Of a stretch of 64,000 nucleotides of DNA, positions 33,167 to 61,394 are shown in pieces. The translations under genes were made by a program, and so were the position numbers. The notes beneath the pieces were generated by a model that did no database searches, was not told the DNA's origin, and saw only the letters and a list, made by a program, of their open reading frames with translations. The DNA is from Bryopsis sp. KO-2023 (lineage: Eukaryota; Chlorophyta; Ulvophyceae; Bryopsidales; Bryopsidaceae), in the NCBI GenBank assembly GCA_030272585.1, contig BSYQ01000011.1, forward strand, positions 3,782,001 to 3,846,000. The letters run 5' to 3'. Position 1 is the stretch's first letter. Each line of letters starts with the position of its first letter.

Positions 33167-33254
33167 AGAGTGGAGTTGCAGCTGAGAGCAATGAAGAAAC
33201 AGCAGGTGATCAACGACACATCTATGACTTTTACAGATTCTGTCTGATCCAAAT

Positions 33255-33515
33255 GAATCCAACTGAATCCAACTGACAACACTGACAACACTGACAACAC
33301 TGACAACACTGACAACACTGACACAACGCTGACAACACTTGACAACCACTGACAACCACTGACTCTGACACACCACTAACACTGACACACCACTGACACT
33401 GACATACCACTAACACAACTGACACAACTACTGACACAACTGACACACCTCTGACACAACACTCAGTCACACTGACACTGACACACCACTGACACCACTG
33501 ACAACACTGCCTCCA
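33255..33515 (+). repeat. Minisatellite of ACACTGACA-type units
   Basis: Units of 9-12 bp (CTGACAACA, CTGACACACCA and variants) are repeated for about 260 bp. A shorter form of the same repeat lies at 28700-28800 before the other copy of block D4. The duplicated block therefore carries this satellite at its left edge. Confidence 0.9.
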
Positions 33516-34605: not shown

Positions 34606-34882
34606 TGGGTTTGTATTGTCAGGATTTGGAGAATGGCCCCAAAAATGCTAATTCATCCTCGAAAGCGCTTTCGAAACATGAGAAATAGACACATTTTGAA
34701 AAATGTTGTTTTGCATTCTATTTTTTAAAAATTTCCAGGTGACTGGTGGTGACCTTAGATGGCCCCCTTTATCTATGTGGCCGTTCTGTCGAGAAGCCAG
34801 ACAGGCATTTTGATGGGATGTTTCCTTCATAGGTTGGCTGAGGAAGACCACCTCTTCCATTGATGCCGGTCCCTTCAAGAGG

Positions 34883-34913
34883 GGTTAACGGGCGCCGTAG
34901 GCGCCCGTTAACC
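34883..34913. repeat. Perfect 14-bp palindrome at the left element end
   Basis: GGTTAACGGGCGCC, a three-base GTA loop, then its exact reverse complement GGCGCCCGTTAACC. The left end can therefore form a hairpin that contains TTAA twice. A related motif (AGGCGCCCGTTGTTCGCC) recurs at 36419-36436. Confidence 0.9.
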
Positions 34914-35015
34914 GCCGGAAAGCACGCCCCCCCGCGGGGTCAATACCCGTCGCAGATTGGTTTTGTTGCAGCAGTCGGGTGTTCTGGATACGTGCAACCC
35001 GTGTGGCGACTGATG

Positions 35016-36064
35016 TTTCAGTGTAGAATGTGCGCATGATACGGGCATGATTGTCACGTGGTTATCTATGGTTGTGAGGGACAGAACACTCGGAGATATC
35101 GGAGTTGCGGGGGTATATATTCTGGGACATTGGACTTTGGTTGTAATCTGATTGACTTGACACCACTGTGGTAGTGAACTGTTCGAACTGCATCCAGCCC
35201 CTCGTCACAACCCGGCGTAGAACCCGGTAACACTGGTCCGACGAGCCGGAACGCATAGGGCTCTGTGAGAGGGGCTGGTACGGGAGGACAGACCGTGGGA
35301 TTGAATTTGGCGGAGGAGGACCACGTTGACCCAGACGTCACTGACGACTCGCTATCTTGCGGTGTCGTGTATGGGTGGATTGAAGAGTGCAGAGACACAT
35401 TGAGACAATCTGTTGGGCAGACGAGTTTCCCGTCATATGCGAGGGTGTTCAGAAGGGCTCCTGCGATTTTGAGATTTCCCAAAGTGGAGACGATGATTCC
35501 CTATTCAGTGAGAAATTGAAACGTGATTATTGACGCTTTTGACGTTGGGAGAGCTCTGAGGGACGAGAGATGGTGGTAGTACGGTGGCGTTGGCATGACG
35601 AGCGACGGTGGGGTCCAGGAGTGAGGCCCGAGACACGGCAGTGCGGTGCAACGTTTGGACACGGCAGTACGGCCATGAGTGAAGGAGCTGAGACCAAGGG
35701 TGTTTGGAAGTCTTGAACTACTGTTCTTTGAGATGACGTTTCTACAGAATGGAGGGAAAGTTGATTCCTGGGAAAGCTTGACAAAGCTCAGAGTTTGACT
35801 AGACATTCGAACATTGCGGGCAAGTTCAAATGTGGGTGGATTGTGTTTCAGTGTAGAATGTGCGCATGATACGGGCATGATTGTCACGTGGTTATCTATG
35901 GTTGTGAGGGACAGAACACTCGGAGATATCGGAGTTGCGGGGGTATATATTCTGGGACATTGGACTTTGGTTATAATCTGATTGACTTGACACCACCGTG
36001 GTAGTGAACTGTTCGAACTGCATCCAGCCCCTCGTCACAACCCGGCGTAGAACCCGGTAACACT
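35016..36064 (+). repeat. 217-bp direct repeats (35016-35233 and 35847-36064) with an embedded TATA box
   Basis: The two copies differ at two positions noted by eye (TTGTAATC versus TTATAATC, CCACTGTGG versus CCACCGTGG). Each has GGGGGTATATATTCTGGG, a TATA-like box, followed by CCCGGCGTAGAACCCGG. Copy 1 leads into an open frame without an ATG start (to 35519; reads TGGQTVGLNLAEEDHVDPDV). Copy 2 leads into spacer. They may be duplicated promoters; the open frame is too weak to call a gene. Confidence 0.8.
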
Positions 36065-36240
36065 GACTATCTTGATCTCGTCTCATCATCTCCATCTATC
36101 TGTATGTATGTATATGCCTACATACGCCTCATCATCGTTCACCAACGAACCTGAACATCCTCCCAAAGTATGTAGTGATATATATATATCCGTCCGCACG
36201 TCTCAGCTTGGCGAGTTTGTGATGTTTCGATGTTCTGATG

Positions 36241-36436
36241 TTCCGTCTGTCCGTCAGTCCGTTTAGGTGCGGCCTCAGCAAGCTAGAACACATCATCATT
36301 CAACGGACTGACGGACGGACGGGCATCGAAACTGGCACCCACGCCGGTAAGGTCCGAGACATGGGAGTTTCGATCCCCGTGGATACGTCCGTCCGTCACT
36401 CCGTTTAGGTGCAACCAAGGCGCCCGTTGTTCGCCA
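36241..36436. repeat. Inverted CGTCCGTCAGTCCGT motifs
   Basis: TCCGTCTGTCCGTCAGTCCG (36242-36261) is followed by AACGGACTGACGGACGGACG in opposite orientation (36302-36321) and by CGTCCGTCCGTCACTCCGTT (36387-36406). The phrase CCGTTTAGGTGC occurs twice. This could be an extended subterminal binding site of the element. Confidence 0.75.
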
Positions 36437-36491
36437 GAAAAGATTTGCCTCATTACATAGACTCATTCTAGACCTAAATTAGTTCCTATCC

Positions 36492-37928
36492 CATCCCGTG
36501 CGAAAACTTGTTGATATCGTCGAGGACACCCACGTCCCCCCGTTCACCCCTCTGTACGCGTGCCCCCCTCCTCCCTGCCTCCGACGTCCCCGTTTACCCG
36601 TCTGTACGCGTGCCCCCCTCCTCCCTGCCTCCGTTCGAAAACTTGTTGATATCGTCGAGGACACCCACGTCCCCCCTCCTCCCTGCCTCCGACGTCCCCG
36701 TTTACCCGTCTGTACGCGTGCCCCCTCCTCCTTGCCTCCGTTCGAAAACTTGTTGATATCGTCGAGGACACCCACGTCCCCCCGTTCACCCCTCTGTACG
36801 CGTGCCCCCCTCCTCCCTGCCTCCGACGTCCCCGTTTACCCGTCTGTACGCGTGCCCCCATCCTCCTTGCCTCCGTCCGAAAACTTGTTGATATCGTTGA
36901 GGACACCCACGTCCCCGTTTACCCGTCTGTACGCGTGCCCCCCTCCTCCCCGCCCGTCCGTTAGAAAACTTGTTGATATCGTCGAGGACACCCACGTCCC
37001 CGTTTACCCGCCCGTACGCGTGCCCCCCTCCTCCCTGCCTCCGACGTCCCCGTTTACCCGTCTGTACGCGTGCCCCCATCCTCCTTGCCTCCGTGCGAAA
37101 ACTTGTTGATATCGTTGAGGACACCCACGTCCCCGTTCACCCGTCTGTACGCGTGCCCCCCTCCTCCCTGCCTCCGTGCGAAAACTTGTTGATATTGTCG
37201 AGGACACACACCCACGTTCCCCCGTTCACCCCTCGGTACGCGTGCCCCCCTCAGCCCCCGTTTACCCGTCTGTACGCGTGCCCCCATCCTCCTTGCCTCC
37301 GTCCGAAAACTTGTTGATATCGTTGAGGACACCCACGTCCCCGTTTACCCGTCTGTACGCGTGCCCCCCTCCTCCCCGCCCGTCCGTTAGAAAACTTGTT
37401 GATATCGTCGAGGACACCCACGTCCCCGTTTACCCGCCCGTACGCGTGCCCCCCTCCTCCCTGCCTCCGACGTCCCCGTTTACCCGTCTGTACGCGTGCC
37501 CCCATCCTCCTTGCCTCCGTGCGAAAACTTGTTGATATCGTTGAGGACACCCACGTCCCCGTTCACCCGTCTGTACGCGTGCCCCCCTCCTCCCTGCCTC
37601 CGTGCGAAAACTTGTTGATATTGTCGAGGACACACACCCACGTTCCCCCGTTCACCCCTCTGTACGCGTGCCCCCTTCCTCCCCCACCCGTGCCCCAACC
37701 AAACCTTTTCTTCACTGTCTCCGTGCGAAAACTTGTTGATATCGTCGAGGACACCCACGTCCCCGTTCACCCGTCTGTACGCGTGCTCCCCTCCTCCCCC
37801 ACCCGTACCCCAACCAAACCTCCTCCCTGCCTCCGTTCGAAAACTCGTTGATATCGCCGAGGACACCCACGTCCCCGTTCACCCGTCTGTACGCGTGCCC
37901 CCCTCCTCCCCCACCCGTACCCCAACCA
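36492..37928 (+). repeat. Minisatellite array with a 426-bp higher-order repeat
   Basis: The array mixes three modules: a core box (CGAAAACTTGTTGATATCGT followed by CGAGGACACCCACGT), a Pro-coding-like box (CCCGTTTACCCGTCTGTACG) and CCTCCTCCCTGCCTCCG spacers. A 426-bp block (36873-37298) is repeated almost exactly at 37299-37724. Long open frames on both strands here are a by-product of the period. The array sits just upstream of the DUF3987-like gene. Confidence 0.92.
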
Positions 37929-38039
37929 AACATGTTCACGCGGAGGGAGTGGATAGTTTTATCGTCATGGCAGGTCCATCTGTGAATAAGCGTGAATGTG
38001 ATATCGTATACGCGGATCATATACGCGGTACGAAACGTG

Positions 38040-38049
38040 AGTATATAAC
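38040..38049 (+). promoter_or_regulatory. TATA box of the DUF3987-like gene
   Basis: AGTATATAAC lies about 47 bp before the ATG at 38090. Similar TATA-like tracts precede two other genes of the element (41750-41764 and 49606-49618), which supports a shared promoter type and decides for 38090 rather than the in-frame ATG at 37967. Confidence 0.55.
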
Positions 38050-38089
38050 GTGCGTCTATCTCGAAGAGAAGAACAATCTCTCTTTTGTT

Positions 38090-40785
38090 ATGGACTCTGA
38101 AGCCCCTTCCCTTGTTCCCCCCGCGGTTCAAGCGCCCTCAATGGTAGATAATCCTGTTTACGAAGAAGGCTTGGACGAAGTCCACTCAGATCATGCAGGG
38201 TTATCCGTGCATGTCACCACTGAAGCACCCGACGAGGACGGACAAGCACCGGAAGAGGACGGACAAGCACCGGAAGAGGAGGTGCTTCAGGACGAAGAAA
38301 TATCCGAGAATATCATGACTATGTCCATCGAGGAGAGGGACGCGTTGTTGAAGAAAATGTTTCCTGGTTGCCTTGCTGGTCGTTTAAACCACGACGACGT
38401 CATGGGGGGCACAGGGGACGCGATCGGTTTTTCGTCTCGTATCCCGTCGTGGAAGCGGCTGTCGGAGAATTTCAACCTGCGACAGAAACTGGTTATGAGG
38501 TTTCTATGCGGAGACTCGGAGGGTGTAGGTGAAGTCGACGCGTACGATATGCTGGGACCGGTCCTTGGTGGTTTTCTTGTCCATGTTGCTGAGGATGTCG
38601 GTTCAAACTGGCCGGCGATGGCGGGTAGTTTCTTCTCTATATCGTCTTTTGCCTTAGGGCCTAACTTGACCGTCGTCCCATCCCGCTCCGGTCCTCTCTC
38701 CTCGTTTGAAGTTTCGTCCTTGTGGTGGTCGTGGACCTTGGCTCCATCTGGTAGCAATAAGTCGGGGGTACACAAGTTTTTTGCTCCTGTCTTGAGGATG
38801 TTGGAGGCATGGATGAATTCTGTCGCATACGGTGAGGCCTCAGGGTACCGCGTCGTTAAGGAGGAGGAAAGTTCGGGGAAGAAGGCGAGAGTAGATGTGG
38901 AATCTGATGCCCGTCAAAGCTTCAAGCCCTCCATGAGAATCAGGTTGAGTTCTGGGTTTTCGTCTGCTTGGACTGTCCGTATCCGTGCACAATTATGTTT
39001 TTGTGTTTCGTCTGCTTGTACTGTCCGTTTCCGTGTATACTAATTGTTATTTTCTTCTCGTCCAGATGCCTTTCTGCGCATACTACTTGGGAGTCCCTGG
39101 GGGAAGAGCTCATGTGTTCCTTCGAACATTCAGTTGTTGACTACAAGGACGAGATGTTCCACCGCCTCGAGCTCATGCAGCGGGGGACGGAGGTCAGCGG
39201 GCTCCTGCAGTTGCGTGAGGGTGGGGGACTGGACCGGGGCACCGTCACAAATGGTTTGTGGCGGGGTCTCGACTCCTCGTATTTCTGCCTAGTTAGTTTT
39301 TGCCAGCCCGAAAAGGCCATGGCCTTTCTACGTGGGGAACTGGACAGCGGCCTCGGCAACAAAATATCCGTGACATGTATGGCTAGGACTTCTATATCCG
39401 TGAGGTCTCTTGTGGCGAAGGCGACGGCTGCTCTAGATGACGACTGCGATAAAAGTCGCAAATACTGCTTGGTGGGGAGCGAAAAGGAGAAGGAAGACTT
39501 CGTCAAGAAGATCGAAGATACGTATGCGTCCGCATGCGAGTGGAGCGAATTTTTGAAGTCAGCTGACTGCGCTACCCCCACTGTCTACGCCAGCAAAGAA
39601 GGAGGAGGGAAGAGGGAAGTCGTGCACGCTCTTGGAGTTGAAGTCAAGGAGGATAGAAGGGACGGATGGGAAAGAAGGGATCCGGCAAACGGGAAGCCAT
39701 CTCTGAGTTTCCCCCAACGGAGGTTGCTGCGTATACTTGCGCAGATGTGGGGTTACACTCACACCCGTGGGACCGTCGACTGCATGAATGTACACCCGAA
39801 GCGTTTGTGCCTGTCTCCCGAGGCCTTTCGGTTGTACTGTAACAGTTTCGACTGGATTCTTCATGAGGTGGCGGTCGGGATGAACTCTGGGCATGCAGCG
39901 GAGGTCGGCGAGCTGAGTAAAGGCCAGGGAGCTATTCTTCAACTGGCGCTTTTGATACACTGCATGGAGCATTGTGTATCGAAACCTCTTGATGAAACCC
40001 CACCTGCAATCGTCTCCGAGGAATCTGTTCGAAAGGCCATCTCGTTCTGGCTTTTTGGATTGATCCAAAAACACGTGCTGCTCGGAAACCGAACCCTTCT
40101 GGCGAAATTCGGCAAGCATTTGTTTCGGGATGGAGGAGGGCCAAGTGGGACGGGGACGACTTCGGTGACGGGGACGGGGATTATGGGGCTTTCGCTGCCC
40201 GTCCCCTCTTCTAAGGAGGTGATGAAGGATCTTGTTCTTCCAAACAATCTGGATGGGGTGTTTGATGCGTGCAAGTTTGCACAGAAATCGCGATTTGTTC
40301 GCGATAATTCGGTTCGTTTCAGGCAATCGACTACGGAAATAATTCTTGATTTTGGTACGTTGACGATCGGGGTCTTCATCGAGAGCGTAAAGAAACTTTT
40401 CAAGGCCACGACCAACGGTCGTCGTCTGTTTATGATGAAGGACATCCCAGTTCTGCCATTGAATTCCAAGTTCAAGATCGGGACGAAGTCGATTATAGTC
40501 TCTGATAGAAAGCCTGGCCAGTTTAATGTGTCGGACATCGTTTTCTTGTTGATCGTCTGCTCTGTCGGGCACGTCGGAATTCCGCGCTTGGGGGACCTTA
40601 GGGGTTGCGGTGCTGGCAAATTTACCTGGGAGAGTTTGAGGGTCGAAGACCGGTCTGATGAATTTTATAATAAGTTACGTATTAACTTGGGAATTACCCC
40701 GGGGGAATGGTTGGACGACGAAGGGTTTGCCGACGCATTCAGGGGGGAAGATAGAGTTGATTTGGGTGCAATAGGTAATTTGTAA
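38090..40785 (+). CDS. DUF3987-like P-loop protein, 857 aa, two exons
   Basis: Exons 38090-38943 and 39066-40785 join in phase (AG|A) across a 122-bp intron with GTTGAG and TCCAG borders; stop is TAA. After an acidic tail with a repeat (EDGQAPEEDGQAPEE), the protein shows GPVLGGFLVHVAEDVGSNWP, then FEVSSLWWSWTLAPSGSNKS with a degenerate Walker A, APSGSNKSGVHKFF. Next come FCLVSFCQPEKAMAFL and, near the middle, RLCLSPEAFRLYCNSFDWIL, AILQLALLIHCMEH and SEESVRKAISFWLFGLIQKH. This order matches DUF3987 proteins ('SP..A...F', 'RLALLLHL.EH', 'I..E....A..L...'), putative ATPases tied to replication modules of mobile elements and viruses. The Walker A lacks the usual second glycine, so activity is uncertain. 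Family call is by motif order only. Confidence 0.6.
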
Positions 40786-40940
40786 TCGTGCGGTCTGGGG
40801 TGGCAGGCGAGTGAGTCGTGGGTTTCAGTTCGTGAGGGGTGCTGCAGGATGGCGTTTCGGATACCCAGGCTGGGGTATATTATGGGGACTGAGTTCGCTG
40901 TTGTTTTGTAACGGTTTCTGTTTAATTCGAAGTTTCGAAG

Positions 40941-41640
40941 AGGTTCGGTTTTGACACACAGTTCCAATGAAAGTGCCGCTCTTTTGCCGCTGAGTTTAAT
41001 TTATGGAGATGCATTAAATTGCTTTATAACAAAAAACCAATCGCGCCTCACAGGTGGTCGTTGCCTCTTTGTGTGCCGCTGTCTGTGCCTCTCTCTATGC
41101 CGCCAAAAAGAGGCGGCGGCACGGTGAGGTTCGGTTTTGACACTCAGTTGCATTGAAAGTGCCGCTCTTTTGCCGCTGAGTTTAATTTATGGAGATGCAT
41201 TAAATTGCTTAATAACGGAAAACCAATCGCGCTTCACTGGTGGTCGTTGCCTCTTTGTGTGCCTGTTTCTGTGCCTCTTTCTGTGCCGCCAAAAAGAGGC
41301 GGCGGCACGGTGAGGTTCGGTTTTGACACACAGTTGGATTGAAAGTGCCGCTCTTTTGCCGCTGAGTTTAAATTGTATTAAATATTAAATATGCATTAAA
41401 TTGTTTTAGAACGGAAAACCAATCGGGCTTCACCGGTGGTCGTTGCCTCTTTATGTGCCGCTGTCTGTGCCTCTTTCTGTGCCGCCAAAAAGGGGCGGCG
41501 GCACGGTGAGGTTCGGTTTTGACACTCAGTTGCATTGAAAGTGCCGCTCTTTTGCCGCTGAGTTTAATTTATGGAGATGCATTAAATTATTTTCAACCGA
41601 AAACCAATTTTAAACCTTAAACGCCTTTAACGGTGACAGA
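40941..41640 (+). repeat. 186-bp iteron array A, four direct units
   Basis: Unit starts (AGGTTCGGTTTTGACAC) lie at 40941, 41127, 41313 and 41509, i.e. periods of 186, 186 and 196. Each unit has GTGCCGCTCTTTTGCCGCTG, an A/T-rich ATTAAATT part, three TGTGCC words about 12 bp apart and a hairpin, GTGCCGCC-loop-GGCGGCAC. The array fills the space between the DUF3987-like gene and the transposase gene. Confidence 0.95.
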
Positions 41641-41749
41641 AGATCCCCCGAGTTGTGCAAGGAAATGACTGCAAAACCCTGCTTCCGCGGCCCTGTACGA
41701 TCGGCTTACATGCCGTCCAGGGACCATTAGAATGGGCGGTACACTTGGT

Positions 41750-41764
41750 TCATATATATATATG
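41750..41764 (+). promoter_or_regulatory. TATA-like tract before the transposase gene
   Basis: CATATATATATATGT lies about 100 bp before the ATG at 41861, right after the repeat array. Start-site position is inferred only. Confidence 0.4.
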
Positions 41765-41860
41765 TTGTATCGAAGTACTTGTAAACAGTAAGTATCCTTT
41801 CAGTCCGTCCAGATCGTTCAGAGTTTCTATGAAAAACAAACAGTAGCCGTTTCAGGAACA

Positions 41861-44417
41861 ATGAGTTCTCGAGAGCTTGCTGCAAGCGAGCAGCTGACAC
41901 AATCCCGCAAGTATCTTCGTCTAGCGCTACAAGAGTATTGTGGTGATGGTGCAAATGTCGGACGAACATGGAAGTATTGGGAGCAGTATGTTCGTCTTGG
42001 GAGGAACGACCCGCATACCATGATAATACTGAAAGAGACCGCCGTGCACATGAACCATGATTGGTCTGTGATTGAAAAAGGCCTGAAGTGTGTTGCTGCT
42101 TTTGTGGACGTCCCGACCCCCAACGAAATGGTATTGGCGTCTACCCCACTTACCAACGGCTACGTGTCCCCAAAGGTAAACTTGATTCTATTAGTCCCGT
42201 TTCTTTACCTGAGTGCACAGGTGCATTAACACCTGGTACCAACCCCGTGCGTGTAGATATCCAGGTGCGTGGTGGACGCGTGCGGTGGGACGGTGAAACC
42301 CGTCATTCACAGACGGGACGCGTGGAAGTATTCCCTGTCCGAGTGCAACCGAGTGACCCTGTTCAGGAAGGAATGTGAAGCATGTGGGACGGTGTATATG
42401 CTTCATGGATACTTCAAGGACCACAACAGAAAATCATTTACGCCTTATCGGGGTTCCGATGTGAATGATTTTTTGCAAACGAGTGTTCGCGGGGAAACGC
42501 TTATACACCACGATCTTCTGAAGAGTTTTGAAGGGTTTTTTATGCGGGCAAGGGCTGGAATGGATCCATTCGTCGATTTTGTGAACTATTCAAGAGGCGC
42601 CCTATCGCGTTTCGAAAGCACCGAAGATTACAAACTCCAGAGAACGAACAGAACGCAACAGTCTCCCGTGGAAGAACGACGCCGGCGAAGGCACACGGAC
42701 AGAAACCAGCTCTCCAGACAAAGGTTCATCGAGGGCTGGCTGTTATGGAAGGCGTTGGAGATGTTGCGGAAGGTATTCGGCGAGGAACCTATATCGGTAC
42801 CCCAAAATGTGGACGAACTAGTTGCAGTGGCGCACCCCCATATTTTCCGTTTTCTACTACGGGCTTCACATGACCACCCTCTTAGATGCCGAGATTCGAA
42901 CTGTGGAAAAGCGATTATTATCGACGGAAACGCTAAACTTCATCGAATGAGGTGCTTACACAGAGGAGAAGATGCACTCGGGGACCCCAAAGGTTTCCAT
43001 AGGTAAGCGTGTGCTTTTTCCACGATCTAAAGAAAGCGTTTGATAGTTTTGTTGATTTGAGAACGTTTGAGTTTTCGTCACACTTCATCTTGGATTCACC
43101 AACACCACTTTCACTAGTTTTTGTTTTGGTCACAGATGTCTTGGTGGGTACTGTTCGTCGTCTCCAGTCCGCGGGATGAATGGCTTCTGTTCGACGCATT
43201 TTGGAACGGCAGAGGGTGCACCAGACACGACCGGTATTTGTACTGATGATGAAGGATGTTCGTATGTTTCCTCGGCTGATTCGGGAATTGAAGAGGAGCG
43301 GGAAATGGTTGAGGCGGAGATCTCTCAGGCTATCTACCAAAGAACCAGATCGAAGAGTCAGGGACTCGTTGAACTCGAAGACGACATGTACGTGGTACAA
43401 GAAATCCTTTCAGCGAGGAAGGTTAAATCGAAAGTCTTGGTCACCGTGAAGTGGGCCGGGTACGAAGATCCCACCGAGGAACCAATCGAAAACCTGTTCC
43501 CTGAGGAGCTCCAGGCAGCTGCCATGACAATACTCGCTTGTGGCGCTATAACGAAGGACACAAAAGCGGTGGTAAACAAGTCTTCAATCTCACAAAGACA
43601 ACGAGTCGAAGTGTTGTCGAAGTTTGCGGAGGCAATGAAAATGTTCAGGGAGGCCATGAAGAAAAAAAATGGTGACACAGGGCAGGTGCATGCTGATATG
43701 AATATCGAATTACCAAATGATTTAAGGACAAGGCACGCTGGGTCCCATAAAAAAAGGAACAACGTTGGGCGAGATGGCAAGAAGAAAACGAAGCGGATTT
43801 TGGAGATCGAGAGAACCATACGCGTATTGACGACGTCTGATGTCGGTGATGAAGAGGATAGACGTCGAGTAGAGTCGCTTCCAGAGCTTTGTTCCATAAG
43901 GGACTTTTCGCACGTCGGAAAAGGTCGAACCGCAGGAACATTGTTTGCCTTTCATCACTGCGGTTTCCCCTTCCCACCCATAGAACTGATTGGGAGCGAA
44001 AGTCTGACGCAAGTTACGCACTACCTGATGACGTTGTTCAAGGCACACCAGCCACGTTATGAAGGAAAGACGGGCGACAAGCTCTTCGTGGCGTATGACA
44101 ATGGATGTCATTTAAAGGCTTTTCTCGACAACCCCATTCGGAAGGAGTCGGCGCCTGCGATGCTGAGAACTTTAGCGGAGCAGACAGTGGTGGTGGTCGA
44201 TCACTTCCACTTCGTGACACATCATACAGGAAAAAAGTGTCTACTGGAGTCTAATCCGTACCGGTACCCGGATTTGGAGGAGGTGAACACTTCAATTGCG
44301 GAGGAGCGGTTCAGCGTTATATCGTCTTTAAAGAGTGTTTTCAAAGGCATGAATGAAAACCGGATGAACTTTTTTCTGCTGGCCCTGACGGACATGTTGC
44401 CCCGGTTTTCTTTGTAA
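41861..44417 (+). CDS. KDZ-like DDE transposase with internal chromodomain, 780 aa, three exons
   Basis: Exons 41861-42175, 42257-43002 and 43136-44417 join in phase over two short GT-AG introns (81 and 133 bp); stop TAA. After a Cys cluster (ISRCVVDACGG, KECEACGTVYMLHG) come FIEGWLLWKALEML, HPHIFRFLLRASHDHPLRC and the putative first catalytic site IIIDGNAKLHRMRC. Then follows another Cys/His-rich part (FHRCLGGYCSSS, GFCSTHFG). A chromodomain follows (MYVVQEILSARK, KVLVTVKWAGYEDPTEEPIE). The core resumes with FVAYDNGCHLKAF (second Asp), VVVDHFHFVTHHTGKKC and VNTSIAEERFSVISSLKS (Glu). 'DGN.KL', 'YD..C.L', 'H....C' and a late Glu are hallmarks of the Kyakuja-Dileera-Zisupton superfamily. A chromodomain between the catalytic residues is unusual and could steer insertion to methylated histones. 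Confidence 0.75.
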
Positions 44418-44490
44418 GTAAGACTTTATGAACTTTTATCTGGTGGCCCTGACGGACATGTTGCCCCGGTTTTCTTTGTAAGACTTTATG
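44366..44490 (+). repeat. 60-bp tandem duplication of the transposase gene's 3' end
   Basis: The last codons and stop (GAACTTTTTTCTGCTGGCCC to TTTGTAAGTAAGACTTTAT) are repeated directly at about 44428-44489 with two small differences. The second copy lies after the stop, so the protein end is unaffected. Confidence 0.92.
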
Positions 44491-44644
44491 AATCCGAAGG
44501 TCAAACAAACAAACAACAGAAAAACACCCAAGTTTAAAAAGTGAATGTAGCAATATATTAACAAACCCCAAAGTTAAAACAATGAATAAAAGAGAAGAAG
44601 AAAGAAGGGGAAATAAAGAAACGGAAAGACCCCAAAATACTCGC

Positions 44645-46270
44645 TCACTGCTGACCCTGTTGGTCGCTTTTTTTAATTTTCTTCGCCCCCCTCGGGACTT
44701 TGGGTGGCGCCAGCTTCGATTCTCGGTAGTACAGCTCGTTCCAGTCGCTGACCACCTTTTTCAAGGACCCTCCCCACTTTCGCCCGACTTCCTTTTTGTA
44801 ACAGCACGGACACACTTCGAACGGCTTATCGAAGGGCTGAACAGGACACACCTCGCCACCCGTGCTACCACGCACGTTTGTCAGCAACTCCCAGTCCGTG
44901 GCCCATTTCCCGTGTTCAGCGTGATACAGGGCTGCCCTTTCAGCGATCCGCAGGCCTGCGTTGTGCGTGACGCACGTCAAGTGCCGCTGACAGGAAATAA
45001 TTCTGTCATAATCATCACGGGGAGGTCGCGTCGACGCGTTGCAGCATGGGCATATTGGATTCGGAGTAGAGCGAGGCTTAGAGTCGTCATCACAAGTCGT
45101 ACGAGTCCTTTTTTTCGTCCTCGTTCCACGCGCCTCCTCATTCTCCGTCCTCGTGGGAACGTCTGTGTCTGTTCGTCCAACGTCCTGGTGTTCCCCACTT
45201 TCCAGATCGTCCATTCCCCCCTTGTCCGTCCTTGTGTCAACGTCTGTGTCTGTTCGTCCAACATCCTGATGTCCCCCAGTTTCCATATCGTCCTCGTTCC
45301 CTCCACCCAGATCGTCCATGCCCCCTCCACCCAGATCATCCGTGCCCCCTCCACCCAGATCGTCCGTGGCCCCTCCACCCAGATCGTCCGTGGCCCCTCC
45401 ACCCAGATCGTCGGTGCCCCCCAGCAATGTTGACCCAACATCACCTCCAGCCGATTCTGGAACAATTGACGGCCGAACTTTTGGCGGCGGTGGAAACAGC
45501 GGCGCTGGATTTGGCGGAGCAAACCGTCGGCTTGAACCCTTGTCCACAACTCTTGTTTGGGAGATTGAACCATCAGGCGTGTTGACACGATCAGACGCTG
45601 TGTCGGGACGACTTCCTCCAGGCGCTGAATCTTCGTTGAGGGTCAGTATGACGCGAACAGGTTTTGGGGCTTGCACTGGCATCGGTTCTTCCACCACTTC
45701 GTGGATCATCTTGAACGCATTGTTTGTCACTCTCCGGAAATCTTCCTTCATCGTCTCCGCCACCGTTTTCATCCTCTGAAGATGCGCCCAGAGGTCGTGG
45801 GACTGCCGATTCGCAACCGACACTGCCATGACATGGTCTCTGAGTTGTCTTCTCAGCATTTCATTTGTTCTCTGGAGTTCGTCCGTTCTGTTTTCTCCCC
45901 CCATTCTTTCCGCCGCCTCCAACTTTGATTCCGCCTCCTCCAACTTAGTTTCCACCTCCTCCAACTTAGTTGCCACCTCCTCCAACTTTCCTTCCGCCTG
46001 AACCGCCTTTCCTTCCGCCGCCTCCAACTTTCTTTCAGCCTCAACCGCCCTTCCTTCCGCCGCCTCCAACATTCTTTCAGCCTGAACCGCCTTTCCTTCC
46101 GCCGCCGCCAACTTTCCTTCAGCCTCAACCGCCTTCCTTTCCGCCTCAACCGCCTTTCTTTCCGCCTCAACCGCCTTTCTTTCCGCGGCCGCCGCCTTCT
46201 CTGTGGCTTCAGCTTTTTCACGATCAGTGACTTCCTTCATCATCGCCATAACATCTTGAATACTCGCCAT
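44645..46270 (-). CDS. Coiled-coil protein with C-terminal CxxC/CxxHxxC/CxxC module, 541 aa
   Basis: Single exon from ATG at 46270 (MASIQDVMAMMKE) to TGA. Residues ~15-130 are a heptad-like Ala/Glu/Lys coiled coil built of KAVEAER-type repeats. Residues ~130-190 continue it (NEMLRRQLRDHVMAVS). A disordered linker carries TDDLGGG repeats and a duplicated GHQDVGRTDTDV stretch. The last ~140 residues contain ICPCCNAST, SCQRHLTCVTHNAG and FEVCPCCYKKE, then a basic tail. The Cys/His spacing CxxC-x16-CxxHxxC-...-CxxC suggests a zinc-binding fold. It is transcribed towards the transposase gene and away from the seven-unit repeat array. The same architecture is in the divergent neighbour at 48000-49079. 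No known family was recognised. Confidence 0.72.
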   Translation of the reverse strand: MASIQDVMAMMKEVTDREKAEATEKAAAAERKAVEAERKAVEAERKAVEAEGKLAAAEGKAVQAERMLEAAEGRAVEAERKLEAAEGKAVQAEGKLEEVATKLEEVETKLEEAESKLEAAERMGGENRTDELQRTNEMLRRQLRDHVMAVSVANRQSHDLWAHLQRMKTVAETMKEDFRRVTNNAFKMIHEVVEEPMPVQAPKPVRVILTLNEDSAPGGSRPDTASDRVNTPDGSISQTRVVDKGSSRRFAPPNPAPLFPPPPKVRPSIVPESAGGDVGSTLLGGTDDLGGGATDDLGGGATDDLGGGGTDDLGGGGMDDLGGGNEDDMETGGHQDVGRTDTDVDTRTDKGGMDDLESGEHQDVGRTDTDVPTRTENEEARGTRTKKRTRTTCDDDSKPRSTPNPICPCCNASTRPPRDDYDRIISCQRHLTCVTHNAGLRIAERAALYHAEHGKWATDWELLTNVRGSTGGEVCPVQPFDKPFEVCPCCYKKEVGRKWGGSLKKVVSDWNELYYRESKLAPPKVPRGAKKIKKSDQQGQQ

Positions 46271-46633
46271 TGTGTTACTGTGTGTTTTGTGTGTTTTGTG
46301 TTTGGTCAACGGATTTCAAAGGCAGGGACGGTCGGTAACAACAAAAACAAGAATGAACCATGAAGGTCGCCGGGGTTTTTATTCCGCTAAGTCTAGTACG
46401 CTTTCTAGTTGAAGGCCGTTTGTGACGGGACGCTACACAACAACCAATGAACCAATTTTACAGGTTGTCCAGTTTTGATCCAAGTATTGAAATTTGTTTG
46501 TTTGTTTGATTGATTTCAGTGAAAACTGTGTGATTGACGACAATGCAGGTGGGCTTTACTGGTGGTCGTTGCCTCTGTATGTGCCGTTGTCTGTGCCTCT
46601 TTCTGTGCCGCCAACAAGAGGCGGCGGCACGGT

Positions 46634-47812
46634 GAGGTTTGGTTTTGACACACAGTTGCAATGAAAGTGCCGCTCTTTTGCCGCTGAGTTTAATTTGTGG
46701 AGATGCATGAAATTGTTTTATAACGGAAAACCAATCGCGCTTGACTGGTGGTCGTTGCCTCTTTGTGTGCCGCTGTCTGTGCCTCTTTCTGTGCCGCCAA
46801 CAAGAGGCGGCGGCACGGTGAGGTTCGGTTTTGACACATAGTTGCAATGAAAGTGCCGCTCTTTTGCCGCTGAGTTTAATTTATGGAGATGCATGAAATT
46901 GTTTTATAACGGAAAACCAATCGCGCTTCACTGGTGGTCGTTGCCTCTTTGTGTGCCGCTGTCTGTGCCTCTTTCTGTGCCGCCAACAAGAGGCGGCGGC
47001 ACGGTGAGGTTCGGTTTTGACACACAGTTGCAATGAAAGTGCCGCTCTTTTGCCGCTGAGTTTAATTTATGGAGATGCATGAAATTGTTTTATAACGGAA
47101 AACCAATCGCGCTTCACTGGTGGTCGTTGCCTCTTTGTGTGCCGCTGTCTGTGCCTCTTTCTGTGCCGCCAACAAGAGGCGGCGGCACGGTGAGGTTCGG
47201 TTTTGACACACAGTTGCAATGAAAGTGCCGCTCTTTTGCCGCTGAGTTTAATTTATGGAGATGCATGAAATTGTTTTATAACGGAAAACCAATCGCGCTT
47301 CACTGGTGGTCGTTGCCTCTTTGTGTGCCTCTTTCTGTGCCTCTTTCTGTGCCGCCAAAAAGAGGCGGCGGCACGGTGAGGTTCGGTTGTGACACACAGT
47401 TGCAATGAAAGTGCCGCTCTTTTGCCGCTGAGTTTAATTTATGGAGATGCATGAAATTGTTTTATAACGGAAAACCAATCGCGCTTCACTGGTGGTCGTT
47501 GCCTCTTTGTGTGCCGCTGTCTGTGCCTCTTTCTGTGCCGCCAACAAGAGGCGGCGGCACGGTGAGGTTCGGTTTTCACACACAGTGCCAATGAAAGTGC
47601 CGCTCTTTTGCCGCTGAGTTTAATTTATGGAGATGCATGAAATTGTTTTATAACGGAAAACCAATCGCGCTTCACTGGTGGTCGTTGCCTCTTTGTGTGC
47701 CGCTATCTGTGCCTCTTTCTGTGCCGCCAACAAGAGGCGGCGGCACGGTGAGGTTCGGTTTTGACACACAGTTCCAATGAAAGTGCCGCTCTTTTGCCGC
47801 TAATTGTCATTT
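46634..47812 (+). repeat. 186-bp iteron array B, seven direct units
   Basis: AGGTT(C/T)GGTT starts lie at 46634, 46821, 47007, 47193, 47379, 47565 and 47751, a period of 186 (187 once). Units are more alike (about 97 percent) than those of array A, so this array expanded or was homogenised more recently. It fills the ~1.7-kb gap between two divergently transcribed genes and so probably holds both promoters. A partial unit precedes it from about 46540. Confidence 0.96.
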
Positions 47813-47999
47813 CACTTGATGAAGGCGACGAGCGAAAAGACTCTGAGGAGCAGTGTCAGCATTGAAACAACGCAGTTTTGGCCTCAAAACGCACGCTCTT
47901 TTTTTCGCTCTCCGCTTTTTTTTGAACGGTTGCTGCCTGTCGCTGGTTGGGTGTGTGTGTGTGGTTGTGAGAGAGAGAGTAAGAGCGTGCGTGTGCAGG

Positions 48000-49079
48000 A
48001 TGGACGCATTGAAAAAAGAAAATGAACGATTGAGGGCAGAGGTGGAGAAATGGAAAAGAAGGGCAACAAAGGAGAGGAGGAATTTGAAGAGGATCCAAAA
48101 GTCGGTGATGGAGACGCTGGACGAGGAGGATTGGACGGAAGAGGAGGAAGAGGAACGTTGGGAAGGGGGGGCGGATATGGATGAATTCCAGGAGGGTGGG
48201 GACACAGAGGGTCCGAGCAGACGTCAGAAACGGACACGGGGATCCGAGACGGAGACGGAGGCGGGGGAGGAGGCGGAGGCGGAGCTACCGATAAGGCGGA
48301 GGGGATTGACAGGGAAGGAGCCGTCAAGGAGACGGAAAAGAGCCCGCAAGGACACGCGGCCGCACCAGCCGAGGCGCACCCCGGACACCCCATGTATCAC
48401 CCCGGCCGCTTGCATCTTTTGCAAGAAGGGTGAATCGGACAGGCCGGGGGGGGGCAGCTTCAACGGCATGGCCGTGAAGTTCTGCGACGCTCACATCGTT
48501 TGTGAGAATGCCCTCTGCCGGGACAAGTTCTGGCTGACCCAGACACTCGAGGTCACCCCAACGAAGACTGTGCGCCGCGCGTTCTTCCCCGAGGCCATGG
48601 CAGCACCGAGAATCGGAGTGCACGAGCCGCCGTTCTGCCTCCTTTGCGAGAGGTCTCCGATCCCACAAACCCGCCGCCTTGCAAACCAGATCTCAAAGAT
48701 CTACAGGGAGAAGGGGAGAGCGATGGAGATCAGGAAGGTGGGGATGGTGGTGGGAGGGGATCCACTTGTGGATCCGAAAACTCTACCGGGTGTTTTTTTC
48801 ACCGTTGGGCAGGGGAATGAGCCAGAGGGGGGTCAGCCAGAGGGGGGTCAGCCAGAGGGGGGTCAGCCAGAGGGGGGTCAGCCGGGGGAGGGGGGGGAGG
48901 CACAGGGAGGTCAGCCGGGGGAGGGGGGTCAGCCAGAGGGAGGTCAGCCGGGGGAGGGGGGGGAGGCACAGGGAGGTCAGCCGGGGGAGGGGGGTCAGCC
49001 AGAGGGAGGTCAGCCGGGGGAGGGGGGGGAGGCACAGGGAGGTCAGCCGGGGGAGGGGGGGGAGGCAGGCGGGAGTTAG
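48000..49079 (+). CDS. Coiled-coil protein with CxxC/CxxHxxC/CxxC module and Gly/Gln/Pro repeat tail, 359 aa
   Basis: ATG at 48000 opens [20 protein letters not shown], a leucine-zipper-like coiled coil, then an acidic stretch ([16 protein letters not shown]) and a basic, NLS-like part ([20 protein letters not shown]). The zinc-type module follows: [24 protein letters not shown] and [10 protein letters not shown]. The tail is a repeat of EGGQP and PGEGG units and ends in TAG. The frame is open further upstream to 47853, and GTGCAG directly before the ATG could be an intron acceptor, so the N-terminus is not certain. Cys/His spacing (CxxHxxC in the middle) matches the divergent neighbour, so the two are probably paralogues. 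Function unknown; DNA binding to the array between them is a hypothesis. Confidence 0.68.
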
Positions 49080-49080
49080 C
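48816..49080 (+). repeat. G-rich coding minisatellite in the gene tail
   Basis: Units of 15 bp (CCAGAGGGGGGTCAG) are followed by composite units with GGGGGAGGGG. The G-run-rich plus strand could form G-quadruplexes. All units keep the frame. Confidence 0.9.
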
Positions 49081-49311
49081 CAAAGGGGGGGGGACTTCAT
49101 AATTGAATTTTATGATTAATGACTGACTGAATGAAAAATTGAAATATTATTTTTGTAACCAAGGTTGGTTCGTTTGTTCTGTTGCCTTGTTAATTCCGCT
49201 GATCAGTTTTATTTCATTTTTATCATAAATCAAACGGCAACCCAGTGTCGCGTCGACACGAACACGCAATGGTAGGGGCTTCCAACAGCCAACCACCTGA
49301 ACACAAACTTC

Positions 49312-49502
49312 GTGCCGCCGCCTCTTTTTGGCGGCACAGAAAGAGGCACAGACAGCGGCACATAAAGAGGCAACGACCACCAGTGAAGCCTGATTGGTTT
49401 TCCGTTATAAAACAATTTAATGCATCTCCATAAATTAAACTCAGCGGCAAAAGAGCGGCACTTTCATTGTAACTGGGTGTTAAAACCGAATCTCACCGTG
49501 TC
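49312..49502 (-). repeat. Single 186-bp iteron unit in inverted orientation
   Basis: One complete unit of the array A/B family on the minus strand, with the hairpin (GTGCCGCCGCC...GGCGGCAC), the three GGCACA words and the GCGGCAAAAGAGCGGCAC box. It lies between the zinc-module gene and the small helical gene. Confidence 0.95.
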
Positions 49503-49605
49503 CCTGACTGACGTCGTTGCAGACACTTGGGACTCCAACAAACGAAAACAATTAAATAATATAACGCCACAGGCACGCTAAAAAGCATCTTCCAACTAGC
49601 ATAAC

Positions 49606-49618
49606 CATATATATATAT
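49606..49618 (+). promoter_or_regulatory. TATA-like tract before the small helical gene
   Basis: ATATATATATATC lies about 140 bp before the ATG at 49758, in the same setting (just after a 186-bp unit) as at 41750-41764. Confidence 0.4.
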
Positions 49619-49757
49619 CCTCCAACTACACCGGTTATGTCCACCTGTTATTTCGTACACGCAGTCCCCCCTCAAACCTTGCCCTGCATAGACACGACGT
49701 CACATCCTCCGAAGACCCTGGCTGACTCAACCTATCAAAACTCCACCTATAGAAACC

Positions 49758-50084
49758 ATGGCTCCCCTGTTCTACCAACTCTGGAAAATGGATTTGGACG
49801 GCTTCCTCGAACAACTGCGACACGAACTCGCCCTTGCGCTCGCAGCATACCGGCGATTACGGGAAGCGAGGGAGGGCTTCGAGGGTGCGGAGGCGATTGC
49901 CGCCGCCAGGCGAGAATGCACGGAGTGCGATGACCGGCTTATCGGCGTGATAGGCATCGTCCTCTCGCTGTTGCCCGCAAACGCCCCCGCGAGACCCACT
50001 CTCCGACGCCTGTTCCTCCGCTACGTTCGCAGGCACTCTGTTCTCCGCAATCATGTGCCGCGGCGGAGGAATCGACGAGGCTGA
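49758..50084 (+). CDS. Small helical protein, 108 aa
   Basis: ATG in a good context (ACCATGG) opens MAPLFYQLWKMDLDGFLEQL, then RHELALALAAYRRLREAREG. After a Cys-containing stretch (ARRECTECDDRLIG) comes a hydrophobic helix (VIGIVLSLLPANAPARP), and the protein ends basic (RNHVPRRRNRRG). Codon use is GC-rich like the other genes of the element, and it has its own TATA-like tract. No family was recognised. It could be an accessory or regulatory protein of the element. Confidence 0.5.
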   Translation: MAPLFYQLWKMDLDGFLEQLRHELALALAAYRRLREAREGFEGAEAIAAARRECTECDDRLIGVIGIVLSLLPANAPARPTLRRLFLRYVRRHSVLRNHVPRRRNRRG

Positions 50085-50613
50085 ATCTGAAAAAAAAAAA
50101 AAAAAAAATCCTTTTCTTTATCAAACTGGGGTTCAGTGCATCCTGAAGGACATTATGGATTGGTAGATCCGTTGTGGTGAACGACCTGTTCAATTGGTGT
50201 TGGAGAAATTCTAAAGCCAGAAATAATGGCGGTAGATATATTAAAACCTACGGAGAGGTGTTTGGACGGACTGTACAATGAGGTATCTTTGGGAAGAAAG
50301 GGAGAGTGTTTCGGTGTTTTTTTCTTGCCAGAAGGGCTCATGGATCCTACGTATTTTTGGAGAACGTTATTGTTTGGTACTGAGTTGCGATGGGAACAAA
50401 ACAAACAAACACAGACACATGTAATCATTGATTGACTCATTGGTTTGGTATGCCTTCCGCTCTTAAAAAAACAAAATAAACCATAGTTCCAATTACAAAC
50501 AATCAATACCAAAACAATCAATTTGTCTGTCCGTAAGGAAAAAGAAATCGCCACCAACAACACAAAAACGTTTCGTTTCATAACCTCCTTCGTTTCGCTC
50601 GTTTCGTTCATTC

Positions 50614-51760
50614 AGTGTGGACGGAGACACGGACGGACGGGGAGGCGGGTTTCGTTTGCTGGCCTCCCTAGTCTGATCGACTTGTGATTTTCACTGGTTT
50701 CCTTCATTGAGTGTGGACGGAGACACGGGCGGACGGGGAGGCGGGTTTTGTTTGCTGGCCTCCCTCGTTTCGTTCATCCAGTGTGGACGGAGACACGGGC
50801 GGACGGAGAGGCGGGTTTTGTTTGCTGGCCTCCCTCGTTTCGTTCATCCAGTGTGGACGGAGACACGGGCGGACGGGGAGGCGGGTTTTGTTTGCTGGCC
50901 TCCCTCGTTTCGTTCATCCAGTGTGGGCGGAGACACGGGCGGACGGAGAGGCGGGTTTCGTTTCCTGGCCTCCCTCGTCTGATCGACTTGTGATTTTAAC
51001 TCGTTTCCTTCATCCAGTGTGGACGGAGACACGGGCGGGCGGGGAGGCGGGTTTCGTTTGCTGGCCTCCCTCGTCTGATCGACTTGTGATTTTAACTCGT
51101 TTCCTTTATCCAGTGTGGACGGAGACACGGACGGGCGGAGAGGCGGGTTTTGTTTGCTGGCCTCCCTCGTTTCGTTCATCCAGTGTGGACGGAGACACGG
51201 GCGGACGGGGAGGCGGGTTTTGTTTGCTGGCCTCCCTCGTTTCGTTCATCCAGTGTGGGCGGAGACACGGGCGGACGGAGAGGCGGGTTTCGTTTCCTGG
51301 CCTCCCTCGTCTGATCGACTTGTGATTTTAACTCGTTTCCTTCATCCAGTGTGGACGGAGACACGGGCGGGCGGGGAGGCGGGTTTCGTTTGCTGGCCTC
51401 CCTCGTCTGATCGACTTGTGATTTTAACTCGTTTCCTTTATCCAGTGTGGACGGAGACACGGACGGGCGGAGAGGCGGGTTTTGTTTGCTGGCCTCCCTC
51501 GTTTCGTTCATCCAGTGTGGACGGAGACACGGGCGGACGGGGAGGCGGGTTTTGTTTGCTGGCCTCCCTCGTTTCGTTCATCCAGTGTGGGCGGAGACAC
51601 GGGCGGACGGAGAGGCGGGTTTCGTTTCCTGGCCTCCCTCGTCTGATCGACTTGTGATTTTAACTCGTTTCCTTCATCCAGTGTGGACGGAGACACGGAC
51701 GGGCGGAGAGGCGGGTTTGGTTTGCTGGCCTCCCTCGTCTGATCGACTTGTGATTTTCAC
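50614..51760 (+). repeat. Minisatellite of GTGTGGACGGAGACACGG units with a 332-bp higher-order repeat
   Basis: Units of about 69 bp (ending CCTCCCTCGTTTCGTTCATC) alternate with about 93-bp units that carry CTGATCGACTTGTGATTTTA. A 332-bp block at 51115-51446 repeats at 51447-51778, and part of the pattern occurs earlier. Open frames (for example 204 aa) result from the period. It lies near the right end of the element, mirroring the array near the left end. Confidence 0.92.
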
Positions 51761-51841
51761 GTGAATCCCCTTCAGTCCGACTTCCGATTATTCCGTTTAT
51801 TTATATTTGGTTTAGGGTCGCGTTAGCCGCCGCATCGACCG

Positions 51842-51893
51842 CGCGACCGGCGTGCGTGTTAGACCGGCGCGACCGGCGTGCGTGTTAGACCGG
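51842..51893 (+). repeat. 26-bp tandem repeat next to the right element end
   Basis: CGCGACCGGCGTGCGTGTTA plus GACCGG occurs twice in a row, then GCGACCGCGACCGCGACCGG. This subterminal GC-rich tract may be bound by the transposase. Confidence 0.85.
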
Positions 51894-51966
51894 CGCGGCG
51901 ACCGCGACCGCGACCGGCGGACAAAGAGGGGGTAAACCCGCGGGGACCAGGCCCTGTTAACCCTTC

Positions 51967-52159
51967 CTCGGTCCCTTATGAAATCTGCTGTGTCAATGAC
52001 TGTCATGGGGTGGTCATGATGGTGCAAATTTCTCTATTCAAGGATTGCTTCAGGGGAGAGTCCCTCACCACACTCCTGATGTCCATGAAAGGAGAGGGGT
52101 GGCAAGTTGATGTTCTAGTTCTACCAGAGGCAAGTTTTGATTTCCTCATGAATAACTAA
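51967..52159 (+). CDS. Possible host exon just right of the insertion
   Basis: The frame reads SSVPYEICCVNDCHGVVMMV, QISLFKDCFRGESLTTLLMS, MKGEGWQVDVLVLPEASFDF and stops at 52157-52159. It has Cys residues like the rest of the locus but no recognised motif. The element separates it from the LamG-like exon at 34.5 kb. Confidence 0.3.
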
Positions 52160-61360: not shown

Positions 61361-61394
61361 TTGTGGAGAAAGGATTTGTAATCAACGTTGCAAA

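What the first reader, a model, noticed from the sequence alone, without database searches (positions are those of the whole stretch)
34885..51960. A 17-kb transposon that pairs a KDZ-like transposase with a DUF3987-like replication protein and iteron arrays
Seen: inverted TTAA-containing ends, a spliced transposase with DGN/YD/E motifs, a spliced protein with DUF3987-like motif order, two zinc-module coiled-coil proteins and 12 copies of a 186-bp unit between genes. Known: KDZ elements are cut-and-paste DNA transposons; DUF3987 proteins occur next to replication genes of mobile elements. Inference: the element may be able to replicate extrachromosomally or control its copy number through a protein-iteron system. 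I know of no described element with this combination.
Basis: partly seen in the sequence, partly recalled or inferred. Interest (0 to 1): 0.92.

Follow-up and report, generated by a model that had tools for sequence, protein, structure and literature searches.

The report
KDZ-like transposon with helicase-type gene
A recently active, roughly 17,000-base jumping gene in an unidentified eukaryote carries, beside its cutting enzyme, a gene of a kind otherwise described as a predicted DNA-unwinding motor of bacterial viruses and islands, and that gene has been kept working by selection.

Summary
The block is a discrete DNA transposon at window 34876-51969 (17,094 bp). Seven full-size copies and two ~570-bp derivatives share its ends, all nine with perfect 8-bp target duplications. 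Two insertion sites have uninterrupted paralogous empty sites at 99-100% identity. It encodes a three-exon transposase with sub-threshold CxC5, chromo and KDZ signals and a two-exon protein matching DUF3987 (46.7 bits, cut-off 27). The DUF3987 gene is intact in 6 of 7 copies, and its two alleles show strong purifying selection (dN/dS 0.18; 0.13 in the domain). The two coiled-coil/zinc proteins are related to high-copy protein families of this genome. A motif near both ends is kept in the short derivatives, so those arrays are most likely transposase-binding sites. The 186-bp units (12 here) matched nowhere outside the seven copies and are probably regulatory. Extrachromosomal replication is not shown. 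Giant KDZ elements with accessory genes are known; a DUF3987 accessory in a eukaryotic transposon was in none of the papers I could search. New variant of a known kind.

The parts
34868..34875 (.). target duplication, left (GGTCCCTT)
34876..51969 (+). whole transposon, 17,094 bp
   Evidence: same ends in 9 loci, all with 8-bp duplications
34876..34889 (+). left terminal repeat CAAGAGGGGTTAAC (11 of 14 like the right end)
34884..34912 (.). left-end palindrome, 13-bp arms around GTA; fully paired in 8 of 9 copies, with matching changes on both arms in copy C7; one mismatch in C4b
   Evidence: (z -3.03)
35014..36066 (.). later insert of a small LTR-like element (222-bp direct repeats), not in the other six full copies; not part of the transposon proper
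36243..36412 (.). left subterminal repeats with core ACGGACGGACG, 6 hits on both strands
36490..37931 (.). left GC-rich tandem array, upstream of the DUF3987 gene; differs between the two allele groups
38090..40785 (+). DUF3987 gene, exons 38090-38943 and 39066-40785, 857 aa; Walker-A-like SGSNKS
40940..41608 (+). 186-bp unit array 1 (4 units), upstream of the transposase
41861..44417 (+). transposase gene, 3 exons (41861-42175, 42257-43002, 43136-44417), 780 aa; CxC5, chromo and KDZ regions
44645..46270 (-). gene C, 541 aa, coiled coil plus C-terminal zinc module; the module is shared with a high-copy family of this genome
46553..47801 (+). 186-bp unit array 2 (7 units), between divergent genes C and D
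48000..49079 (+). gene D, 359 aa, coiled coil plus zinc module and Gly/Gln/Pro-rich repeat tail; weak relative of another high-copy family
49311..49500 (-). single inverted 186-bp unit
49758..50084 (+). small ORF E, 108 aa, 98.5-98.8% alike in DNA to the other six copies; coding status not tested
50598..51757 (+). right subterminal array (70/96-bp units) with the ACGGACGGACG core (12 hits)
51956..51969 (-). right terminal repeat
51970..51977 (.). target duplication, right (GGTCCCTT)

Best explanation
This is a young, autonomous KDZ-like cut-and-paste DNA transposon of a eukaryotic genome that has taken in a DUF3987 P-loop ATPase gene as a working accessory. Shown: exact ends, 8-bp target duplications, empty sites, intact genes, purifying selection on the DUF3987 gene, and two allele groups of the left part in otherwise similar copies. 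Inferred: the transposase binds the subterminal ACGGACGGACG repeats at both ends and moves the element. Inferred: the DUF3987 protein, whose prokaryotic relatives are predicted helicases of mobile elements, acts on the element's DNA (opening ends or arrays, or helping the element be copied during host replication) and so raises its copy number. Inferred: the 186-bp arrays are regulatory DNA for the transposase and for genes C and D.
For: Nine loci with common ends and 8-bp duplications. Empty sites: 3 of 5 matches for the C9 site and 37 of 40 for the C12 site run unbroken through bases 1-299 or 1-300 of the joined flanks; in both cases the element's own two flanks are the matches that break at the junction. 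CxC5, chromo and KDZ signals in one protein. DUF3987 46.7 bits; dN/dS 0.179 overall, 0.126 in the domain, with the intron kept in both alleles. Within this genome the search with the exon-2 ORF found that gene only in the seven copies and, as two C-terminal fragments, on C2. ACGGACGGACG: 20 hits in the element, 0 in 46.9 kb of window flanks, 0.35 expected; 4 and 3 hits in the two short derivatives. 186-bp unit: 85 matches, all inside the seven copies.
Against: KDZ, CxC5 and chromo scores are below Pfam cut-offs, and the KDZ family search of the genome rang nowhere, its control genomes included. The DUF3987 protein has a variant Walker A (N before K). It matched no phage record, no PDB chain (47), no NCBIfam model (73) and PHROGs only at E 0.37 (35). 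A profile of nine phage/plasmid DUF3987 proteins did not score it significantly. No expression data. A role in movement is not tested: purifying selection would also fit anti-silencing or another trans role. Only two alleles could be compared.
Confidence: 0.55

Rival explanations
1. The element has an extrachromosomal or replicative phase: DUF3987 loads at the arrays as a replicative helicase and host polymerases copy an excised circle.
For: DUF3987 domains in prokaryotic mobile elements take the place of replicative helicases next to primases (passages of PMC5862659). 186-bp arrays are present in all seven full copies.
Against: No primase or polymerase recognised in the ORFs scanned. 186-bp unit shows no special fold. 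End-proximal arrays are explained by transposase binding. All nine copies have an ordinary 8-bp duplication. No circle data.
Confidence: 0.15
2. DUF3987 and the zinc proteins C and D counter host silencing or regulate the element, as TET/JBP is proposed to do in fungal KDZ elements; DUF3987 is not used in DNA movement.
For: KDZ and other elements carry epigenetic accessories (PMC12730594 abstract and passages; ParB-methyltransferase in algal Sola1, PMC12477816 section 5 part 2). C and D are related to high-copy families of this genome. A chromo-like segment lies inside the transposase (below cut-off).
Against: DUF3987 relatives are placed with replication proteins; I know of no link to chromatin (recalled, not searched).
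Confidence: 0.2
3. DUF3987 is a captured passenger of no use to the element, like Pack-type cargo.
For: Giant algal transposons that carry accessory genes, some without any transposase, are reported (PMC12477816).
Against: Intact in 6 of 7 copies, dN/dS 0.126 in the domain with dS 0.52, kept even in copy C8 that lacks transposase and gene C; no host copy outside the element family was found.
Confidence: 0.06

Closest known systems
KDZ (Kyakuja-Dileera-Zisupton) DNA transposons, including giant algal and fungal forms
   Same: Transposase with a KDZ-like catalytic part and a Cys cluster; 8-bp target duplications as reported for Zisupton, a Puccinia Dileera and Cryptococcus KDZ1 (PMC12730594 and PMC12810828, passages); over 10 kb with accessory genes as in Ectocarpus (PMC12477816)
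   Different: A chromo-like segment between catalytic blocks, very short imperfect terminal repeats, a DUF3987 gene, and element-only 186-bp arrays. Kyakuja elements are reported with 7-bp duplications (PMC12730594)
DUF3987 putative helicases of phages and islands (fused to PrimPol-PV1 primases)
   Same: DUF3987 domain above the curated cut-off; Walker-A-like, QPE and C-terminal blocks in order (motif names recalled)
   Different: Spliced, no primase domain recognised, atypical Walker A, own C-terminal 240 aa; too distant for direct phage matches
Sola1 giant transposon with ParB-methyltransferase accessory (Ectocarpus; PMC12477816)
   Same: A eukaryotic giant DNA transposon carrying a prokaryote-type DNA-acting accessory
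   Different: Different transposase and a different accessory
TET/JBP-bearing fungal KDZ elements (PMC12730594)
   Same: KDZ element with a captured DNA-acting gene
   Different: No TET/JBP match among the ORFs scanned here; DUF3987 instead

Membership tests
KDZ DNA transposon | 8-bp target duplication | tested here: met
   9 of 9 loci; note that Kyakuja is reported with 7 bp and Cryptococcus KDZ2/KDZ3 with 4-8 bp
KDZ DNA transposon | Catalytic part related to the KDZ profile (PF18758) | tested here: inconclusive
   E 4e-4 to 7e-4, better than chance, but 19.7-20.6 bits against the curated cut-off of 26.6; genome search with the profile rang nowhere, controls included. Hence KDZ-like
KDZ DNA transposon | KDZ-associated Cys cluster (CxC5, PF18718) | tested here: inconclusive
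   22.1 bits against 26.9, E 1.8e-4
KDZ DNA transposon | Catalytic acidic triad in the expected blocks | tested here: inconclusive
   IDGN, YDNGC/VVDHFHF and AEERFS seen by eye; block pattern recalled; not modelled, structure prediction was off
KDZ DNA transposon | Terminal inverted repeats | tested here: met
   imperfect, 11 of 14; short compared with the 139-241 bp of Cryptococcus KDZ1-3
KDZ DNA transposon | Place in the Kyakuja, Dileera or Zisupton subgroup | not tested
   no reference set of transposases held
DUF3987 (PF13148) | Profile score above cut-off | tested here: met
   46.7 and 46.8 bits against 27 for the two alleles
DUF3987 (PF13148) | P-loop (Walker A) with K and S/T | tested here: inconclusive
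   SGSNKS in both alleles; N instead of G before K
DUF3987 replicative helicase | Helicase or ATPase activity | not testable with these tools
   a prediction for the prokaryotic members too (PMC5862659 passages)
DUF3987 replicative helicase | Association with a primase | tested here: not met
   no primase match in the ORFs scanned; the small ORFs of the element were not all scanned
Iteron-controlled replicon | Direct repeats bound by the replication protein at an origin | not testable with these tools
   arrays are present, but end-proximal repeats fit transposase binding and the 186-bp unit has no special fold

The most novel reading that the evidence does not exclude
A eukaryotic cut-and-paste transposon that has turned into a self-amplifying replicon: the DUF3987 motor, loaded on the element's own arrays, drives copying of the excised or integrated element with host polymerases, so that movement and copy number are run by the element and not by host replication timing.
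Probability: 0.12. Interest if true: 0.88.

Novelty: new variant of a known kind. Interest (0 to 1): 0.62.

Why it matters
Cut-and-paste transposons are thought to gain copies only through host repair and replication timing (established view, recalled). An element that carries and conserves a mobile-element-type helicase gene gives a concrete system in which to ask whether a DNA transposon can act on its own copying. It also adds a new type to the short list of prokaryote-type accessory proteins in giant eukaryotic transposons.

Tried and rejected

Led nowhere: the search for related loci in viral contigs with one exon each of the two large proteins (pattern hits, none a relative); phage tblastn at E up to 1 (46, none); PDB at E up to 5 (47, none); NCBIfam (73, none); PHROGs (35, E 0.37 only); KDZ profile over the genome (21, none, controls silent too); profile of nine phage/plasmid DUF3987 proteins (70: not significant, score -4.0 for one allele and no hit for the other; hhalign E 0.32, probability 0.2%, though its aligned C-terminal block is the expected one); C against D zinc modules (78, E 0.074); Pfam on ten ORFs of the window outside the element (81, nothing over a curated cut-off), Rfam (82) and tRNA (83) scans of the window, both empty: host not identified. 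One search's TSD column, element lengths and stated element coordinates are wrong (loose pattern); redone. In one search the DUF3987 gene and transposase exon 1 were translated out of frame by a wrong start; redone.
Full report
THE ELEMENT IS REAL AND EXACTLY BOUNDED. The window lies in a 91-Mb genome of 28 contigs, unnamed; introns in the genes and the genome size point to a eukaryote (inference). Searches with the two ends found nine matching end pairs on eight contigs. Stretches around nine loci were fetched and compared with the window's copy. Seven are full-size: C11, this window, 17,094 bp; C10 16,667; C12 20,078; C8 9,978; C5 16,801; C9 17,389; C4 16,126. Two are derivatives of 569 and 568 bp (C4b, C7). 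All nine start CAAGAGGGGTTAACGG and end CTGTTAACCCTTCCTC. All nine are flanked by a perfect 8-bp duplication of differing sequence, and none extends to 9 bp. A tenth locus (C4:2582813) keeps only a left end. The element in the window is 34876-51969.

EMPTY SITES. Two copies lie in repeated DNA. Their flanks, joined with one copy of the duplication, were searched in the genome. For the C9 site, 3 of 5 matches run unbroken through all 300 bases at 99%; the other 2 are the element's own flanks, which break at the junction. For the C12 site, 37 of 40 matches run through 1-299 or 1-300 (21 at 99-100%, 16 at 89-91%), one covers 75-299, and the remaining two are the element's own flanks, which break at the junction. 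The target of C12 is thus a family with many near-identical members, which suggests a young insertion (inference).

GENES. Exon borders were read from the sequence and checked against small indels between copies: those at 42232 and 43033-43044 lie in the two proposed transposase introns, and among C11, C5, C10, C9 and C4 no exon indel was seen except one in C10. The transposase (41861-42175, 42257-43002, 43136-44417; 780 aa) shows CxC5 at 103-216, Chromo at 439-475 and KDZ at 665-768, with E of 1.8e-4, 1.1e-3 and 7.4e-4. All are below Pfam's curated cut-offs, so the name KDZ-like is fair and the subgroup is open. The 8-bp duplication agrees with Zisupton and a Puccinia Dileera (PMC12730594, passages) and with Cryptococcus KDZ1 (PMC12810828, passages); Kyakuja is reported with 7 bp. 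The DUF3987 gene (38090-38943, 39066-40785; 857 aa) scores 46.7 bits against a cut-off of 27. The ORFs holding exon 1 and exon 2 match different parts of the profile: positions 8-69, E 0.017, and 235-349, E 1.4e-6.

THE DUF3987 GENE IS UNDER SELECTION. Copies C11 and C5 carry one allele, the other five another. Between C11 and the other group the windows from 36.07 to 40.3 kb are mostly 72-90% alike (short matches inside the left array reach 91-94%, a 200-base piece 96% and a 49-base piece 96-98%), and from 40.3 kb to the right end mostly 92-100%, down to 89% inside the 186-bp arrays; the left terminal 138 bases are 99% alike. So the left part exists in two forms in otherwise similar copies, which points to exchange between element lineages (inference). 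Across 846 codons (C11 against C9) dS is 0.425 and dN 0.076 (ratio 0.179). In residues 150-611 dS is 0.521, dN 0.066, ratio 0.126, Fisher p 2.8e-40; in residues 701-857 dS is only 0.089. The intron is kept in both. The frame is intact in 6 of 7 copies; C10 has an insert in exon 1 and a further frame break in exon 2. Transposase: intact in 4 of 7 (C11, C5, C9, C4); frameshifted in C10, split by an insert in C12, absent in C8. Between C11 and C9 it differs by 6 silent and 11 amino-acid-changing bases, so selection on it cannot be judged from these copies. Gene C: intact in 6 of the 6 copies that have it. Gene D: intact in 6 of 7, broken in C9. All four are intact in C11, C5 and C4. C8 has lost the stretch between the two 186-bp arrays, as recombination between them would do (inference), and keeps DUF3987 and D.

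WHAT IS THE DUF3987 PROTEIN? In prokaryotic mobile elements DUF3987 sits beside primases in the place of known helicases and is predicted to be a helicase (passages of PMC5862659). Here no primase or polymerase was recognised in the ORFs scanned; not every small ORF was scanned. Relatives were not found in viral contigs, phages, PDB or NCBIfam. A home-made profile of nine phage/plasmid proteins did not score significantly, although its best segments fall on the P-loop (SGSNKS against sgiGK) and on the expected C-terminal block. The P-loop is atypical. Membership rests on the Pfam score; activity is unknown.

ARRAYS. The core ACGGACGGACG (up to 1 mismatch) occurs 20 times in the element; 20 first-order Markov resamples of the element gave a mean of 0.35 and at most 3. 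It occurs 0 times in 46.9 kb of window flanks and once in 43.2 kb of flanks around the nine copies. It is crowded near both ends (18 of 20 in the first 1.7 and last 1.5 kb), and present 4 and 3 times in the two short derivatives. This is what transposase-binding subterminal repeats look like (inference). The left end also carries a 13-bp-arm palindrome (fold z -3.03), fully paired in 8 of 9 copies, with matching changes on both arms in C7 and one mismatch in C4b. The 186-bp unit occurs 11 times direct and once inverted in this copy, and all 85 genome matches lie within the seven full copies (coordinates compared by eye). The units stand before the transposase, between divergent genes C and D, and, inverted, after D. 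Unit numbers differ between full copies (5 to 12 direct). The fold is ordinary (z -0.27). Regulation of transcription is my best guess.

GENES C AND D. Of 80 matches listed for gene C, 6 are the element copies, 3 are short matches to its middle part, and 71 are matches to its zinc module elsewhere, 69 of them without an internal stop (lower bound, 80 of 159 candidates scored). Of 76 listed for gene D, 8 rows are the element copies and 68 lie elsewhere, weakly (E 4e-6 to 1e-3), most in frames of about 410 aa. One of these, read in part (L067), has the same coiled-coil then zinc-module order. None of the 71 lies within 20 kb of any of the 68. So the two zinc modules are shared with two separate high-copy, presumably mobile, gene families of this genome; the link is firm for C and weak for D.

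MECHANISM. Most likely: transposase binds subterminal repeats, excises and reinserts the element with 8-bp staggered cuts (insertion with 8-bp duplication is shown; excision is inferred). DUF3987 acts as an ATP-driven helper on element DNA (inferred). C and D are nucleic-acid- or protein-binding accessories (inferred from architecture).

COMPARISON. Giant KDZ elements with accessory genes are known from Ectocarpus, and a 31.7-kb active one is cited there for Chlamydomonas (PMC12477816, passages and section 5 part 2). A prokaryote-type ParB-methyltransferase is known in Sola1 of the same alga, and TET/JBP in fungal KDZ elements (PMC12730594, abstract and passages). A search for DUF3987 in the held library gave 10 papers, none of which, by title and abstract start in the listing, concerns a eukaryotic transposon; DUF3987 with transpos- and eukaryot- gave 2, both on prokaryotes. 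The founding KDZ paper (Iyer et al. 2014) and the Chlamydomonas paper are not held, and Repbase could not be searched, so an unheld precedent is possible.

Noticed in passing
window 35014-36066: LTR-like small element (222-bp direct repeats, TG...CA, about 4-5-bp duplication by eye) inserted in this copy and not in the other six full copies; other matches at C6, C8 and C7.
   Followed up: partly
window 34884-34912 and copy C7: 13-bp-arm palindrome at the very left end of the transposon; one short copy has changes on both arms that keep it.
   Followed up: partly
G000 C14:31694, 38740, 45786 and others: High-copy family of about 412-aa coiled-coil/zinc proteins weakly related to gene D; three places 7,046 bp apart in a row.
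   Followed up: partly
G000 places: Second high-copy family sharing gene C's zinc module, 71 places listed (lower bound).
   Followed up: partly
G000 C2:5646043-5650261: Degenerate relative: match to the CxC5 exon (44%, one stop) about 4 kb from a broken D-like match, perhaps an older KDZ element; letters could not be fetched.
   Followed up: no
L053 and L054 (G000 C2:4540871, C2:6190753): Two 98% alike stretches with a 79%-alike fragment of the C-terminal part of the DUF3987 gene, probably a relic of a relative.
   Followed up: partly
copy C8 (L027, L028): Transposase and gene C missing between the two 186-bp arrays while DUF3987 and D remain.
   Followed up: partly
window 61376-61846: 57-bp tandem repeat array of about 7 units outside the element.
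   Followed up: no
window 28709-28798 and 33247-33503: ACTGACAAC-like minisatellites outside the element.
   Followed up: no
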